Position numbers and translations under genes: made by a program. A DNA stretch of 24,734 nt from a virus, in IMG/VR virus record IMGVR_UViG_3300050821_002714, positions 1 to 24,734 of that record; one strand, written 5' to 3'. Positions 16,326 through 18,299 of this stretch are shown one piece after another. Each line of letters opens with the position of its first letter. Position 1 is the first letter of the stretch. The notes under the pieces are model-generated. The model was given only the letters and a program-made list of their open reading frames with translations. It searched no databases and had not been told where the DNA came from.

Positions 16326-18026
16326 TCAGCCCGCAGAGACCCACGGCCAATCGGCGGAGCGACCCCTCTCAAGCATCGACAGGACCCGGAACCCTGCATC
16401 GGTCAGCCCGCCGATCGCCACCCGCAGCCCGCTACCAGACGGCGCGTGACCGCGCTCGTAGCCGGCCAGATTGAACGTGACCAGCGGCGTGGTCTGCGGG
16501 ATGACCCCGCCGACATCCTCGCCGCTCGCCTGCTCGTCGGTGAGGATCACCACCCGGGTGTGTCCAGCGAAGTGCTGGCGGAGAGCGGCGGCGGTATCGG
16601 TGCCGCCACCGAGGAAATACCCGCCGTCCTTCCACCGGTCGATGGACTTCAGCAGCGACTCGCCCCGCCGAAGCGGGAACTCCTTCGTCTTCACGCCCGG
16701 CGCGTCGTTGAAGTAGTACCGCGCGGAGGAGAACGACACCACGTCGGCCTGCTCGCACCGCTGCGCGAGGGAGATCCCGAACAGGGCCGCGGCGTCCCAC
16801 CGCATCAGCGTCCCGTCCTTGGAGAACCCGGCGTTCATCGACGAGCTGGTGTCCACCAGGATCAGCGTGCGCCCCTTCAGCGCCGGGATGTTCCCGATCG
16901 ACGCGGTGAGTGCCTTGTCGAGCGGGTGAGCCCACCGCAGGGACGGCGCGGCCCGGTACGCGGACAGGAACCGCATCGGCAGCTGCCGGGAGCGGGCGAC
17001 CTGCTCCGGGTCCGCCAGCTTCGCCGCGACCTGCTCGGCGAGCTTGTCGGAGACGCCGGCCTGGTCGAAGTTGCGGAGGTTCCGCAGCAGCGCCATGTAG
17101 CCCATGGACGGGATGACCGCGGACCACGCTGCGGCGTCCATGGGTCCCTGCAACCAGCCCGCCAGCGCCTCCCAGGTGATCCCTGCGTCCTTAAGCCTCT
17201 GCGGGTCGTTCAGGACGGCCCGGCGGTTACCGGCTGGCAGCGCCAGGAGCTCGGCGCGGGCGCGCAGCATGCCCAGCGTCTCGGGGATCGGGTTGTCGCG
17301 GCCGTGACGGCGGTCCAGGGCGTGGGCGAACAGGTCGCCCTGCCATGCCGCCCACGCCTCGCTGTGGCTGCCCGCGATCGGGTGCACGAGGTCGATGACA
17401 TCACCGAACCGGTAGCCGGTGGTGGCGGTGTCGTACTTCGCGAGGTTCCGCTCGGTGTAGAGCCGGGCGACCGCGTCGGCGACACCGCGCTTGACCGGCT
17501 TGGGCAGGTTCCGGCCGTACTTCGAGGTCCAGTAGGCGAGGATCTCGCCCGGCTCGTCGGCGCGCTGGAGTACGGAGTCGATGACGCGCCGGTTCGCGGT
17601 CGCCTGGTAGGTGAGGCTGTCGCCACCGAACACGGCCGCGCCCGGGCCTTGGCCGGCTTCGTGGGTGCGCCGCTCGCGGGCTCCCGCAGATTCCAGGCGC
17701 GCGTGGACGTACTCGGCCGCGCCGACGATGGACGCCGACCGCATGTTGCCTTCGCCGCGAAGCCATTCGAGGAGGCCCGCAGTCCAGTCGGGGTCGTCAA
17801 CGGCGAGATGCCGTACGAGCTGGACGTACCGGTCGTCGCGGTTCTTGGCGCGCTCGTAGAAGGTGTCTTCGCCGACGAGGTTGGTGACCGCGAGCAGGAA
17901 CAGTTCGCCCTTCGCGTCCCGGGCGAAGCCGGGTGCTCCTTCGAAGGTGCGGCCGGTTGGGGTCTGCTCGGACTTGACCGGGCTGGACACCGCGGCGCGG
18001 GTGACGGGCCTGTTGAACTTGGACAT
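16326..18026 (-). CDS. Ro60 / TROVE domain RNA-binding protein
   Basis: This 566-residue protein matches Ro60 (Rsr-like) proteins, rings that bind misfolded or single-stranded RNA ends in the central hole and Y RNA on the outer face. Residues about 40-365 form the helical TROVE/HEAT-repeat part (ELFLLAVTNLVGEDTFYERA, TAGLLEWLRGEGNMRSASI, MGYMALLRNLRNF). Residues 386-550 form a von Willebrand A domain with an intact MIDAS: D392-S394-S396 in VDTSSSM, T476 in GGGTDTA and D497 in ILTDE. The start is ATG at 18026 with GAGAGGAG upstream; an in-frame GTG at 18047 would lie before that site. An intrinsic terminator follows, and a Y RNA-like sequence lies directly upstream on the same strand. It sits between terminase and portal but is not a virion assembly gene, so it behaves like a phage moron. 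Confidence 0.92.
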   Translation of the reverse strand: MSKFNRPVTRAAVSSPVKSEQTPTGRTFEGAPGFARDAKGELFLLAVTNLVGEDTFYERAKNRDDRYVQLVRHLAVDDPDWTAGLLEWLRGEGNMRSASIVGAAEYVHARLESAGARERRTHEAGQGPGAAVFGGDSLTYQATANRRVIDSVLQRADEPGEILAYWTSKYGRNLPKPVKRGVADAVARLYTERNLAKYDTATTGYRFGDVIDLVHPIAGSHSEAWAAWQGDLFAHALDRRHGRDNPIPETLGMLRARAELLALPAGNRRAVLNDPQRLKDAGITWEALAGWLQGPMDAAAWSAVIPSMGYMALLRNLRNFDQAGVSDKLAEQVAAKLADPEQVARSRQLPMRFLSAYRAAPSLRWAHPLDKALTASIGNIPALKGRTLILVDTSSSMNAGFSKDGTLMRWDAAALFGISLAQRCEQADVVSFSSARYYFNDAPGVKTKEFPLRRGESLLKSIDRWKDGGYFLGGGTDTAAALRQHFAGHTRVVILTDEQASGEDVGGVIPQTTPLVTFNLAGYERGHAPSGSGLRVAIGGLTDAGFRVLSMLERGRSADWPWVSAG

Positions 18027-18032
18027 GGAAAA

Positions 18033-18059
18033 GGTCTCCTCTCGCACCGGGAGGAGACC
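18033..18059 (-). promoter_or_regulatory. Hairpin enclosing the Ro60 ribosome-binding site
   Basis: GGTCTCCTC (18059-18051) and GAGGAGACC (18041-18033) form a perfect 9-bp stem with a nine-base loop. The 3' strand holds the AGGAG site of the Ro60 gene, and TTTT follows directly, six bases before the ATG. It could hide the ribosome-binding site, and could also define the 3' end of the upstream Y RNA by termination or processing. Confidence 0.65.
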
Positions 18060-18298
18060 CGCGTTCAGAGATCGCGCCCGAGATCGATGTCGGCGAAGGA
18101 GACGTAGACGCTCTGCCGTTGAGCTACAGCGACCTTCCGGTCACCGGCGGGACTCGAACCCGCACCATCCCATTAACAGTGGAAGTAACCCTCACCTGCG
18201 CACCGGGCACGCTCTGAAGTTGTGTCCCTCCCGAGATCAGGTGTGACGCCCGGGATATTTCGCCAAATGAAGTACCGGGTGTCGAACGCACCGGGAGG
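18043..18298 (-). repeat. 12-nt direct repeats flanking the Y RNA region
   Basis: CCTCCCGGTGCG occurs at 18298-18287 and again at 18054-18043 on the minus strand. Its core CCCGGTGCG occurs a third time at 18207-18199, inside the Y RNA stem. Each outer copy is the 5' part of a hairpin stem. The segment CGGGAGG at 18233-18227 can pair with either outer copy, so the repeats offer mutually exclusive folds. Confidence 0.6.
18064..18218 (-). ncRNA. yrlA-like: Y RNA with a circularly permuted tRNA-like module
   Basis: The terminal stem is UUCAGAG (18218-18212) with CUCUGAA (18070-18064), then a 1x3 bulge, then GUGCCCG (18210-18204) with CGGGCGC (18080-18074). A further helix joins 18196-18190 to 18098-18092. 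Inside is a tRNA-like module in permuted order. It comprises an anticodon-type arm 18184-18168 (5-bp stem, loop CUGUUAA with GUU in the middle), a 4-nt variable region and a T arm 18163-18147 (GCGGG, UUCGAGU, CCCGC). Then come a 7-bp acceptor stem CGGUGAC/GUCGCUG (18146-18140 and 18133-18127) closed by CGGAAG, UA at 18126-18125 like U8-A9, and a D arm GCUC-AACGGCA-GAGC (18124-18110). Bacterial Y RNAs beside Ro60 genes are known to mimic tRNA. The fold is drawn by eye; ends and promoter are not determined. Confidence 0.75.
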
Positions 18299-18299
18299 G
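18226..18299 (-). ncRNA. Second structured RNA element upstream of the Y RNA
   Basis: An 8-bp perfect stem CCCTCCCG (18299-18292) with CGGGAGGG (18233-18226) encloses inner helices CCCGG/CCGGG (18279-18275 with 18253-18249) and ATTT/AAAT around a GGCG loop (18268-18257). It lies between the terminase stop and the Y RNA and contains no reading frame that looks coding. It could be a second, simpler Y-type RNA, a leader for the Y RNA transcript, or a processing signal. The rest of the gap, 18300-18360, shows nothing further that I can name. Confidence 0.45.

What the first reader, a model, noticed from the sequence alone, without database searches (positions are those of the whole stretch)
18109..18184. 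Complete four-arm tRNA mimic in circularly permuted order
Reading 5' to 3': anticodon-type arm with loop CUGUUAA, 4-nt variable region, T arm with UUCGAGU, acceptor stem closed by CGGAAG, U8-A9, D arm with GG in its loop, and a G at position 26. The chain is opened between positions 26 and 27, exactly where the Y stem attaches. All seven acceptor pairs form (two G-U). The GUU loop equals that of tRNA-Asn, so the module may have come from a tRNA-Asn gene or may interact with enzymes that modify or recognise it, such as Q34-type or T-loop modification enzymes.
Basis: partly seen in the sequence, partly recalled or inferred. Interest (0 to 1): 0.8.

Follow-up and report, generated by a model that had tools for sequence, protein, structure and literature searches.

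The report
Phage Y RNA mimicking a whole tRNA
Beside its Ro60 gene this phage carries a small RNA that is predicted to fold like a complete tRNA, anticodon arm included, but with its parts in shuffled order; it is a second layout of a known RNA type, the bacterial Y RNA, and a common gene finder mistakes it for a real tRNA gene.

Summary
It is the tRNA-like module of a Y RNA (18207-18076) beside a phage Ro60 gene (18047-16326). A covariance model built from 26 relatives without the window finds it full-length at 119.3 bits. Relatives show compensatory changes in the Y, anticodon-type, T, acceptor and D helices; even tRNA tertiary pair 15-48 covaries (162 of 167; shuffled mean 88.5). Loops follow tRNA anticodon-loop rules (U33 and R37 each in 90 of 94), but the triplet takes 33 forms, so a tRNA-Asn or Q34 story is not supported. 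Permuted tRNA mimicry in Y RNAs is known (YrlA, PDB 6CU1). Here are two permutations: the Rfam-YrlA one, open at the anticodon loop, and this one, opened at 26|27 with a closed anticodon hairpin. They alternate across a Ro60 tree. I found no print description of the second, but the key papers were not held. ARAGORN of 97 such modules tRNAs. Most likely role (inferred): Ro60-bound tRNA mimic and protein tether. Anticodon decoy is the bold reading. Expression and binding are untested.

The parts
18076..18207 (-). Y RNA with four-arm permuted tRNA module
   Evidence: R1 covariance model built without the window: 119.3 bits, E 1.3e-25, model 1-131 of 131
18185..18207 (-). 5' strand of the Y (putative Ro60-binding) stem, with conserved GGUGCG..AG and UUAC
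   Evidence: pairs with 18103-18076; helices 1 and 2 have changes on both sides in 10 of 14 pairs; MFE
18168..18184 (-). anticodon-type arm UUCCA-CUGUUAA-UGGGA
   Evidence: covariation at 30-40 and 31-39 in relatives; loop rules of tRNA
18164..18167 (-). variable region UGGU; U48 matches A15
   Evidence: 15-48 covariation in 162 of 167 modules
18147..18163 (-). T arm, loop UUCGAGU
   Evidence: RF02553 and RF00005 alignments
18127..18146 (-). acceptor-type hairpin, 8 pairs, GGAA loop
   Evidence: sequence; 6 of 7 counted pairs with changes on both sides in relatives
18109..18126 (-). U8-A9, D arm with GG in loop, G26
   Evidence: sequence
18076..18103 (-). 3' strand of the Y stem ending GAUCUCGGGC
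18226..18299 (-). second, short Y RNA without tRNA module, just upstream
   Evidence: R1 match 18295-18229, 21.7 bits, E 0.002; fold z -1.98, 7 of 200 shuffles as good
16326..18047 (-). Ro60/Rsr gene (TROVE + VWA); probable ATG at 18026
   Evidence: PF05731 E 1.9e-15; VWA_2 22.5 bits, under its cut-off of 27; PDB TROVE proteins 9L5Y/9KOP E 8.6e-20; D399, S401, S403, T483, D504 invariant in A1 (reading them as the VWA metal site is recalled)
18032..18060 (-). hairpin over the probable Ro60 ribosome-binding region
   Evidence: fold z -2.79, 2 of 200 shuffles as good

Best explanation
It is a Ro60-associated Y RNA encoded by a phage whose relatives are in actinobacteria and their phages. Shown by comparison: a Y stem carries a domain with all four tRNA helices and a covarying tRNA tertiary pair, in circularly permuted order, with the chain entering between positions 26 and 27 and a closed, tRNA-like anticodon hairpin. 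Inferred: phage Ro60 binds the Y stem; the domain is taken for a tRNA by host proteins (modification enzymes, PNPase or other tRNA-binding proteins) and so tethers or gates them on the Ro60 ring, as reported for D. radiodurans Y RNA and proposed for YrlA. The 26|27 entry and the YrlA-type entry in the anticodon loop are interchangeable ways to hang the same tRNA core on the Y stem; here the anticodon hairpin is left free.
For: Window RNA found full-length by a model built without it. Ro60 next door; a module of kind A, B or unclear beside Ro60 in at least 58 of 93 viral and 69 of 80 actinobacterial loci. On 47 relatives: 94.0% of cells paired against 75.1% shuffled, 280 double-changed cells against 87.6, covariation 0.523 against 0.167, 0 of 500 shuffles as high; slid controls 0.062-0.132. 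15-48 pair 162 of 167. Four-arm forms also in phage contigs under 55% G+C: of 29 modules with a Ro60 frame within 2.5 kb, 30-40 pairs in 18 (null 8.3, highest 16) and 31-39 in 26 (13.2, highest 22). The two layouts switch 21 times (18 forced by well-supported branches) on a quick tree of 90 Ro60 proteins and, read by eye, differ between related mycobacteriophages (Archie against LeBron and Douge). Published function, passages only: YrlA modified by DusA and TruB, RYPER with PNPase (PMC8394870).
Against: No expression, binding or probing data. Single-sequence folding is not unusually stable. RNAalifold omits the anticodon arm. The Rfam YrlA model scores 28.5 bits, under its cut-off of 69. R1 is not fully specific: 69.9 bits at a tandem tRNA-Asn pair. 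The tether role rests on work on other Y RNAs.
Confidence: 0.62

Rival explanations
1. Ordinary tRNA-Asn gene: the ARAGORN call 18210-18139, with the downstream acceptor/D-like sequence incidental.
For: ARAGORN call; such calls lie over 48 of 97 four-arm modules, 46 with the module's own anticodon; 4 of 45 mycobacteriophage records carry a tRNA feature there (Gardann twice, Wilder, Zakai).
Against: Its 5' half is the conserved Y-stem strand, found also in Y RNAs without any tRNA module. By my reading its acceptor pairs only 5 of 7. Rfam tRNA 20.8 bits, under the cut-off 29. The acceptor strand instead covaries with the downstream strand in relatives.
Confidence: 0.03
2. Permuted tRNA gene: the transcript is circularised or ligated and cut to yield a working tRNA, as in some algae (recalled).
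For: All four arms and a tRNA-like anticodon loop.
Against: The window's acceptor hairpin is capped by GGAA. Triplet and body rarely agree. The Y stem would have to be removed.
Confidence: 0.03
3. Anticodon decoy: the free hairpin is bait or competitive inhibitor for host anticodon nucleases or anticodon-loop enzymes, with Ro60 as carrier; the varied triplets follow the varied enzymes.
For: Loop rules as in real tRNAs with 33 triplets. Published suggestion that the YrlA tRNA-like domain could competitively inhibit an anticodon nuclease (PMC7790460, passages). Phage tRNAs that evade tRNA-targeting defences are described (PMC10264068, PMC11555353; abstract starts only).
Against: The closed hairpin is dispensable over evolution: YrlA-type modules with an opened loop replace it at the same place. 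Fragments of Salmonella YrlA were not detected. The triplet could drift neutrally. Four-arm forms lie beside Ro60 in 49 of 80 actinobacterial genome loci too (prophages among these not told apart).
Confidence: 0.17
4. The four-arm form is the fused junction of two tandem tRNA genes, kept as a structural relic without function.
For: The permuted order arises at a junction of tandem tRNA genes: the best control hit of R1 is a tandem tRNA-Asn pair with a short spacer, 69.9 bits.
Against: Good for origin, poor for 'relic': Y, acceptor, anticodon and tertiary covariation show selection, and the module is kept beside Ro60 from phage contigs of low G+C to Streptomyces.
Confidence: 0.05

Closest known systems
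YrlA (Rfam RF02553; Salmonella YrlA, PDB 6CU1)
   Same: Y RNA of Ro60/Rsr loci; T, acceptor and D arms in the same permuted order (alignment); circular permutation against tRNA is in print (PMC11472068, passages).
   Different: In the Rfam model the strand before the T arm pairs with the strand after the D arm, i.e. the anticodon stem is open at its loop. Here it is a closed hairpin and the Y stem enters at 26|27. Score 28.5 against a cut-off of 69.
Short bacterial Y RNAs without tRNA module (YrlB type; that YrlB lacks the module is recalled)
   Same: Y stem with GGUGCG and UACUUC; the window's upstream neighbour 18299-18226 is of this kind.
   Different: No tRNA module.
Permuted tRNA genes of algae and archaea (recalled)
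   Same: 3' half before 5' half.
   Different: Here a capped acceptor hairpin without CCA, a Y stem and a Ro60 neighbour.
tmRNA and plant-virus tRNA-like structures
   Same: tRNA mimicry by a non-tRNA.
   Different: Topology: tmRNA not permuted, the viral ones non-circularly permuted, Y RNA circularly (PMC11472068 Table 1 in passages).

Membership tests
Bacterial Y RNA (Ro60-associated) | Encoded next to a Ro60/Rsr gene | tested here: met
   TROVE/VWA frame opens 28 nt after the RNA end (probable ATG after 49 nt)
Bacterial Y RNA (Ro60-associated) | Long stem formed by the 5' and 3' ends, conserved in relatives | tested here: met
   helices 1 and 2: 99.5% and 83.3% of cells paired, 10 of 14 pairs with changes on both sides
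Bacterial Y RNA (Ro60-associated) | Binds Ro60 | not testable with these tools
   needs pull-down
YrlA (RF02553) | Score at or above the Rfam cut-off (69 bits) | tested here: not met
   28.5 bits; none at cut-off in 11 and 20 relative loci, which hold both layouts
YrlA (RF02553) | T, acceptor, D arms in permuted order | tested here: met
   model positions 24-84 aligned
YrlA (RF02553) | Stem between the strands before the T arm and after the D arm (open anticodon stem) | tested here: not met
   window: 4 of 5 pairs in that register (two G-U) against 5 of 5 in the competing hairpin. In 118 linker 21-22 relatives the hairpin's inner 4 pairs form in 86 (null 26.1, highest 38), the open stem 5 of 5 in 13 (null 4.0, highest 10), so a few of these may be open or ambiguous
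tRNA (RF00005) | Score at or above 29 bits in linear order | tested here: not met
   20.8 bits
tRNA (RF00005) | Anticodon-loop rules Y32, U33, R37 | tested here: met
   CUGUUAA; family 89, 90 and 90 of 94; real tRNAs 80, 83 and 83 of 83
Permuted tRNA gene | Processed to a mature tRNA with CCA | not testable with these tools
   sequence speaks against it: capped acceptor hairpin

The most novel reading that the evidence does not exclude
Ro60 particles of phages and actinobacteria carry bait tRNAs: complete tRNA mimics with a free, changeable anticodon hairpin that catches or inhibits enzymes reading anticodon loops (anticodon nucleases, t6A- or Q-type modifiers), so that phages defend the tRNA pool without making a translatable tRNA. 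The two permutations would be two settings, loop exposed or loop hidden.
Probability: 0.17. Interest if true: 0.85.

Novelty: new variant of a known kind. Interest (0 to 1): 0.6.

Why it matters
It shows a second way to hang a tRNA core on a Y RNA stem, with the anticodon hairpin intact and exposed, and that the two ways have been swapped repeatedly. That gives paired natural variants for asking what the tRNA mimic is for, an open question for Y RNAs. It also warns that a standard tRNA finder calls about half of these RNAs tRNAs (48 of 97), so phage tRNA counts near Ro60 genes may be inflated.

Tried and rejected
Specific tRNA identity: comparing D-arm plus T-arm bodies of 94 unique four-arm modules with 83 tRNAs of three actinobacterial genomes (19 isotypes, no tRNA-Leu among them) gave body/anticodon agreement in 16 of 94 (any tie; shuffled mean 7.7; 19 of 10000 shuffles reach it). 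Of 16 modules with a Glu body, 8 bear a Glu anticodon; of 6 with a Gln body alone, 1 bears a Gln anticodon. So some modules copy a particular tRNA, most do not, and the window's is not Asn-like.

t6A idea: U36-A37-A38 in 42 of 94 loops, but real tRNAs with U36 all have A37-A38 (27 of 27), so this adds little beyond the general loop rules.

RNAalifold on 47 relatives did not draw the anticodon arm. Alignment A3 misplaced the one-base length difference and was dropped for model building in favour of A4, which holds only relatives of the longer linker. R1 is not fully specific: in 40 tRNA-bearing control loci it gave 79 matches at E<=1, the best 69.9 bits at a tandem tRNA-Asn pair, the next 36.9. 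The five DUF2828 phage loci L374-L378 (Listeria, Escherichia, Vibrio, Bacillus, Staphylococcus phages) gave no R1 hit at E<=0.01. Promoter and terminator scans found nothing. The pattern scan also caught true tandem tRNAs (by eye L250, L293, L344 and others); one search had left them in, so I repeated its test with Ro60-bearing loci only.

Rows dropped: 286 raw candidates to 233 after filters for score, Y-type motif and no tRNA D arm upstream; of these 97 class A, 45 class B, 45 unclear, 46 without anchor; 183 unique anchored modules, 118 with linker 21-22. The filters used the motif CTTC (or TACC), so forms without it are missed. The 15-48 count covers 167 of the 183, those with a 4-pair D stem and A first in the D loop. 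The mycobacteriophage Archie arm, with 4 of 5 pairs and one mismatch, fell among the unclear. Some viral contigs were fetched twice (for example L002 and L034) and count once as modules but as separate loci; four of its 93 viral loci (L011-L014) came through DNA similarity, not Ro60; so locus shares there are lower bounds.

Novelty in print: searches listed no paper whose listing or read passages describe a closed anticodon hairpin in a Y RNA; Chen 2014, Wang 2018 and Sim and Wolin 2018 are not held, so this is open.

Full report
What was claimed and what is there. The finding describes a tRNA-like module at 18109-18184. Read on the minus strand, every element is present at the stated places: an arm UUCCA-CUGUUAA-UGGGA, four variable bases, a T arm, an acceptor-type hairpin, U-A, a D arm and a G. 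The acceptor hairpin actually has eight pairs closed by GGAA, and a 5-nt linker separates G26 from the Y stem. ARAGORN calls a tRNA-Asn at 18210-18139; Rfam at its cut-offs finds nothing, and with relaxed limits finds YrlA at 28.5 bits (E 3e-4, cut-off 69) and tRNA at 20.8 bits (cut-off 29).

Surroundings. The recognised genes run on the minus strand. Upstream is the terminase large subunit (ORF 20202-18361), downstream a Ro60/Rsr gene (18047-16326; TROVE E 1.9e-15), then portal, Clp-type protease and capsid. The window is a 24,734-base virus record. Nearest solved proteins by sequence are TROVE-domain proteins 9L5Y and 9KOP. So the RNA sits where bacterial Y RNAs sit.

Relatives. The Ro60 protein gave 10 viral loci, one of them (L001) identical to the window; a profile of 11 Ro60 proteins (A1) gave 80 viral and 80 actinobacterial loci (the best 80 of 267 and of 558). 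A script looked for T arm, adjoining hairpin, two bases and D arm (286 candidates; 233 after filters). They fall into two kinds: kind A (97, strict) with a closed hairpin before the T arm, and kind B (45) in which the strand before the T arm pairs with the strand after the D arm, the topology of the Rfam YrlA model; 45 were unclear and 46 lacked the anchor motif. At least 32 of 93 viral loci hold A and 26 hold B; of 80 genome loci 49 and 18.

Is the anticodon-type arm real? To avoid choosing by pairing, I took all anchored modules whose distance from the conserved UUC to the T arm is 21-22 nt (118). Taking the best of three registers, 73 form all five pairs (shuffled 16.6) and 112 at least four (shuffled 71.4); position pair 30-40 forms in 93 (shuffled mean 49.6, highest 65) and 31-39 in 102 (47.2, highest 64). 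The first three 5' bases are part of the anchor motif and cannot covary. In modules with linkers of 14-20 nt the kind-B stem is complete in 27 of 54 (null 2.3, highest 8); in the 21-22 group it is complete in 13 of 118 (null 4.0, highest 10), so that group is not pure. On 47 aligned four-arm RNAs the whole structure has 94.0% of cells paired (shuffled 75.1), 280 double-changed cells (87.6) and covariation 0.523 (0.167), with no shuffle of 500 as high; these 47 had been chosen with the hairpin, so for that helix one search is the fair test. RNAalifold on the same alignment draws the Y stem and the T, acceptor and D arms but not the anticodon arm.

Is it folded like a tRNA? The tertiary pair 15-48 lies between the D loop and the variable region and was not used for selection. 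It is G-C or A-U in 162 of 167 modules that could be read (shuffled mean 88.5, highest 110 of 5000); in nonredundant modules 120 of 125, linker 21-22 78 of 80, linker under 21 39 of 40. The window has A15-U48. In 94 unique strict four-arm loops, Y32 occurs 89, U33 90, R37 90 and A38 86 times; 83 real actinobacterial tRNAs give 80, 83, 83 and 61; loops shuffled within themselves give U33 30.2 (highest 45). Without choosing by pairing and in one fixed register, U33 occurs in 94, R37 in 106 and A38 in 94 of 118. The triplet itself takes 33 forms, GUU in 11 of 94.

Membership of the window RNA. A covariance model from 26 relatives without the window (A4, R1) finds 18207-18076 over all 131 positions at 119.3 bits (E 1.3e-25), and 18295-18229 at 21.7 bits (E 0.002), a second short Y RNA without a tRNA module. 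The control is not clean: in 40 loci with true tRNAs the best match is 69.9 bits, at two tandem tRNA-Asn genes. That is instructive: the permuted order is what one reads from the anticodon arm of one tRNA gene to the D arm of the next, so a tandem pair is a simple source for the module (inference).

How wide. Some hits without Ro60 are real tandem tRNAs. Of 62 new modules with linker 21-22 and a Ro60 frame on the same strand within 2.5 kb, 30-40 pairs in 38 (null 18.5, highest 28) and 31-39 in 51 (29.6, highest 42); of the 29 on contigs under 55% G+C, 18 (8.3, highest 16) and 26 (13.2, highest 22). An example at 29% G+C is UUCGA-AUGCUAA-UCGAG in L334. Mycobacteriophages of the Archie group carry a four-arm-like form after a DUF2828/DUF7788 'Ro-like' gene, with 4 of 5 pairs in Archie; read by eye, LeBron and Douge have kind B at the same place. 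On a quick tree of 90 Ro60 proteins, the kind of the nearest upstream module changes 21 times (18 forced by well-supported branches; shuffled mean 25.2; 10 of 500 shuffles as low), so it is only slightly clustered.

What is known. Passages of PMC8394870 say that YrlA resembles the D, T and acceptor arms, is modified by DusA and TruB, and that Rsr, Y RNA and PNPase form a degradation machine. PMC11472068 (passages) reports the circular permutation between tRNA and Y RNA structure 6CU1. PMC7790460 (passages) notes that YrlA fragments were not detected under tRNA cleavage and suggests that the tRNA-like domain might inhibit the nuclease. So permuted tRNA mimicry is known; the closed anticodon hairpin with entry at 26|27 is what I did not find in print, with the caveat that the primary papers were not held.

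How it works. Shown: structure conserved by selection, a covarying tRNA core pair and a tRNA-like loop, frequent company of Ro60. Inferred: Ro60 binds the Y stem, and the module recruits or occupies proteins that bind tRNA. The swapping of the two layouts suggests that the common part, the tRNA core, matters most; whether the free anticodon hairpin adds a task is the open and testable point. The GUU triplet of this copy carries no evident meaning: it varies across relatives, and the body of the module is nearest tRNA-His/Lys.

Practical consequence. ARAGORN reports a tRNA over 48 of 97 four-arm modules, 46 with the module's triplet, but over only 4 of 45 kind-B modules; 4 of 45 mycobacteriophage records carry such a label (tRNA-Asn in Gardann, two records, and Wilder; tRNA-Thr in Zakai).

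Noticed in passing
18299-18226 minus: A second, short Y RNA without tRNA module lies directly upstream of the four-arm one; by eye L002 (2600-2980) and L010 (2480-2910) have three Y RNAs of different kinds in tandem.
   Followed up: partly
18060-18032 minus: Strong hairpin covering the probable ribosome-binding site of Ro60 (z -2.79); by eye similar hairpins precede Ro60 in L002, L003 and L005. Possible control of Ro60 translation.
   Followed up: no
window 20202-16326 minus: Ro60 and its Y RNAs sit between terminase and portal genes, an insertion-like place; a DUF2828-type gene of Staphylococcus phage BE22 (L378) also follows the terminase small subunit gene.
   Followed up: no
phage records: Ro-like (DUF2828/DUF7788-type) proteins related to that of phage Archie match 658 phage records (Escherichia, Salmonella, Vibrio, Listeria and others). 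Five loci sampled gave no R1 hit; whether they use another RNA is open. L374 has a gene annotated as tRNA splicing ligase nearby.
   Followed up: partly
L042:1654-1785, L026:1847-1979, L136 module at 1861: Some modules closely copy one tRNA, anticodon included: Gln (loop UUCUGGU) and Glu (D arm GUCU or GUCC-AGCGGCCNA-GGAC with anticodon CUC).
   Followed up: partly
L261:2268-2637; L354:about 767; L360:3794: Four-arm-like modules in AT-rich viral contigs without a detected Ro60 frame in the fetched stretch; L360 has a nucleotidyltransferase-Nudix type frame by eye.
   Followed up: no
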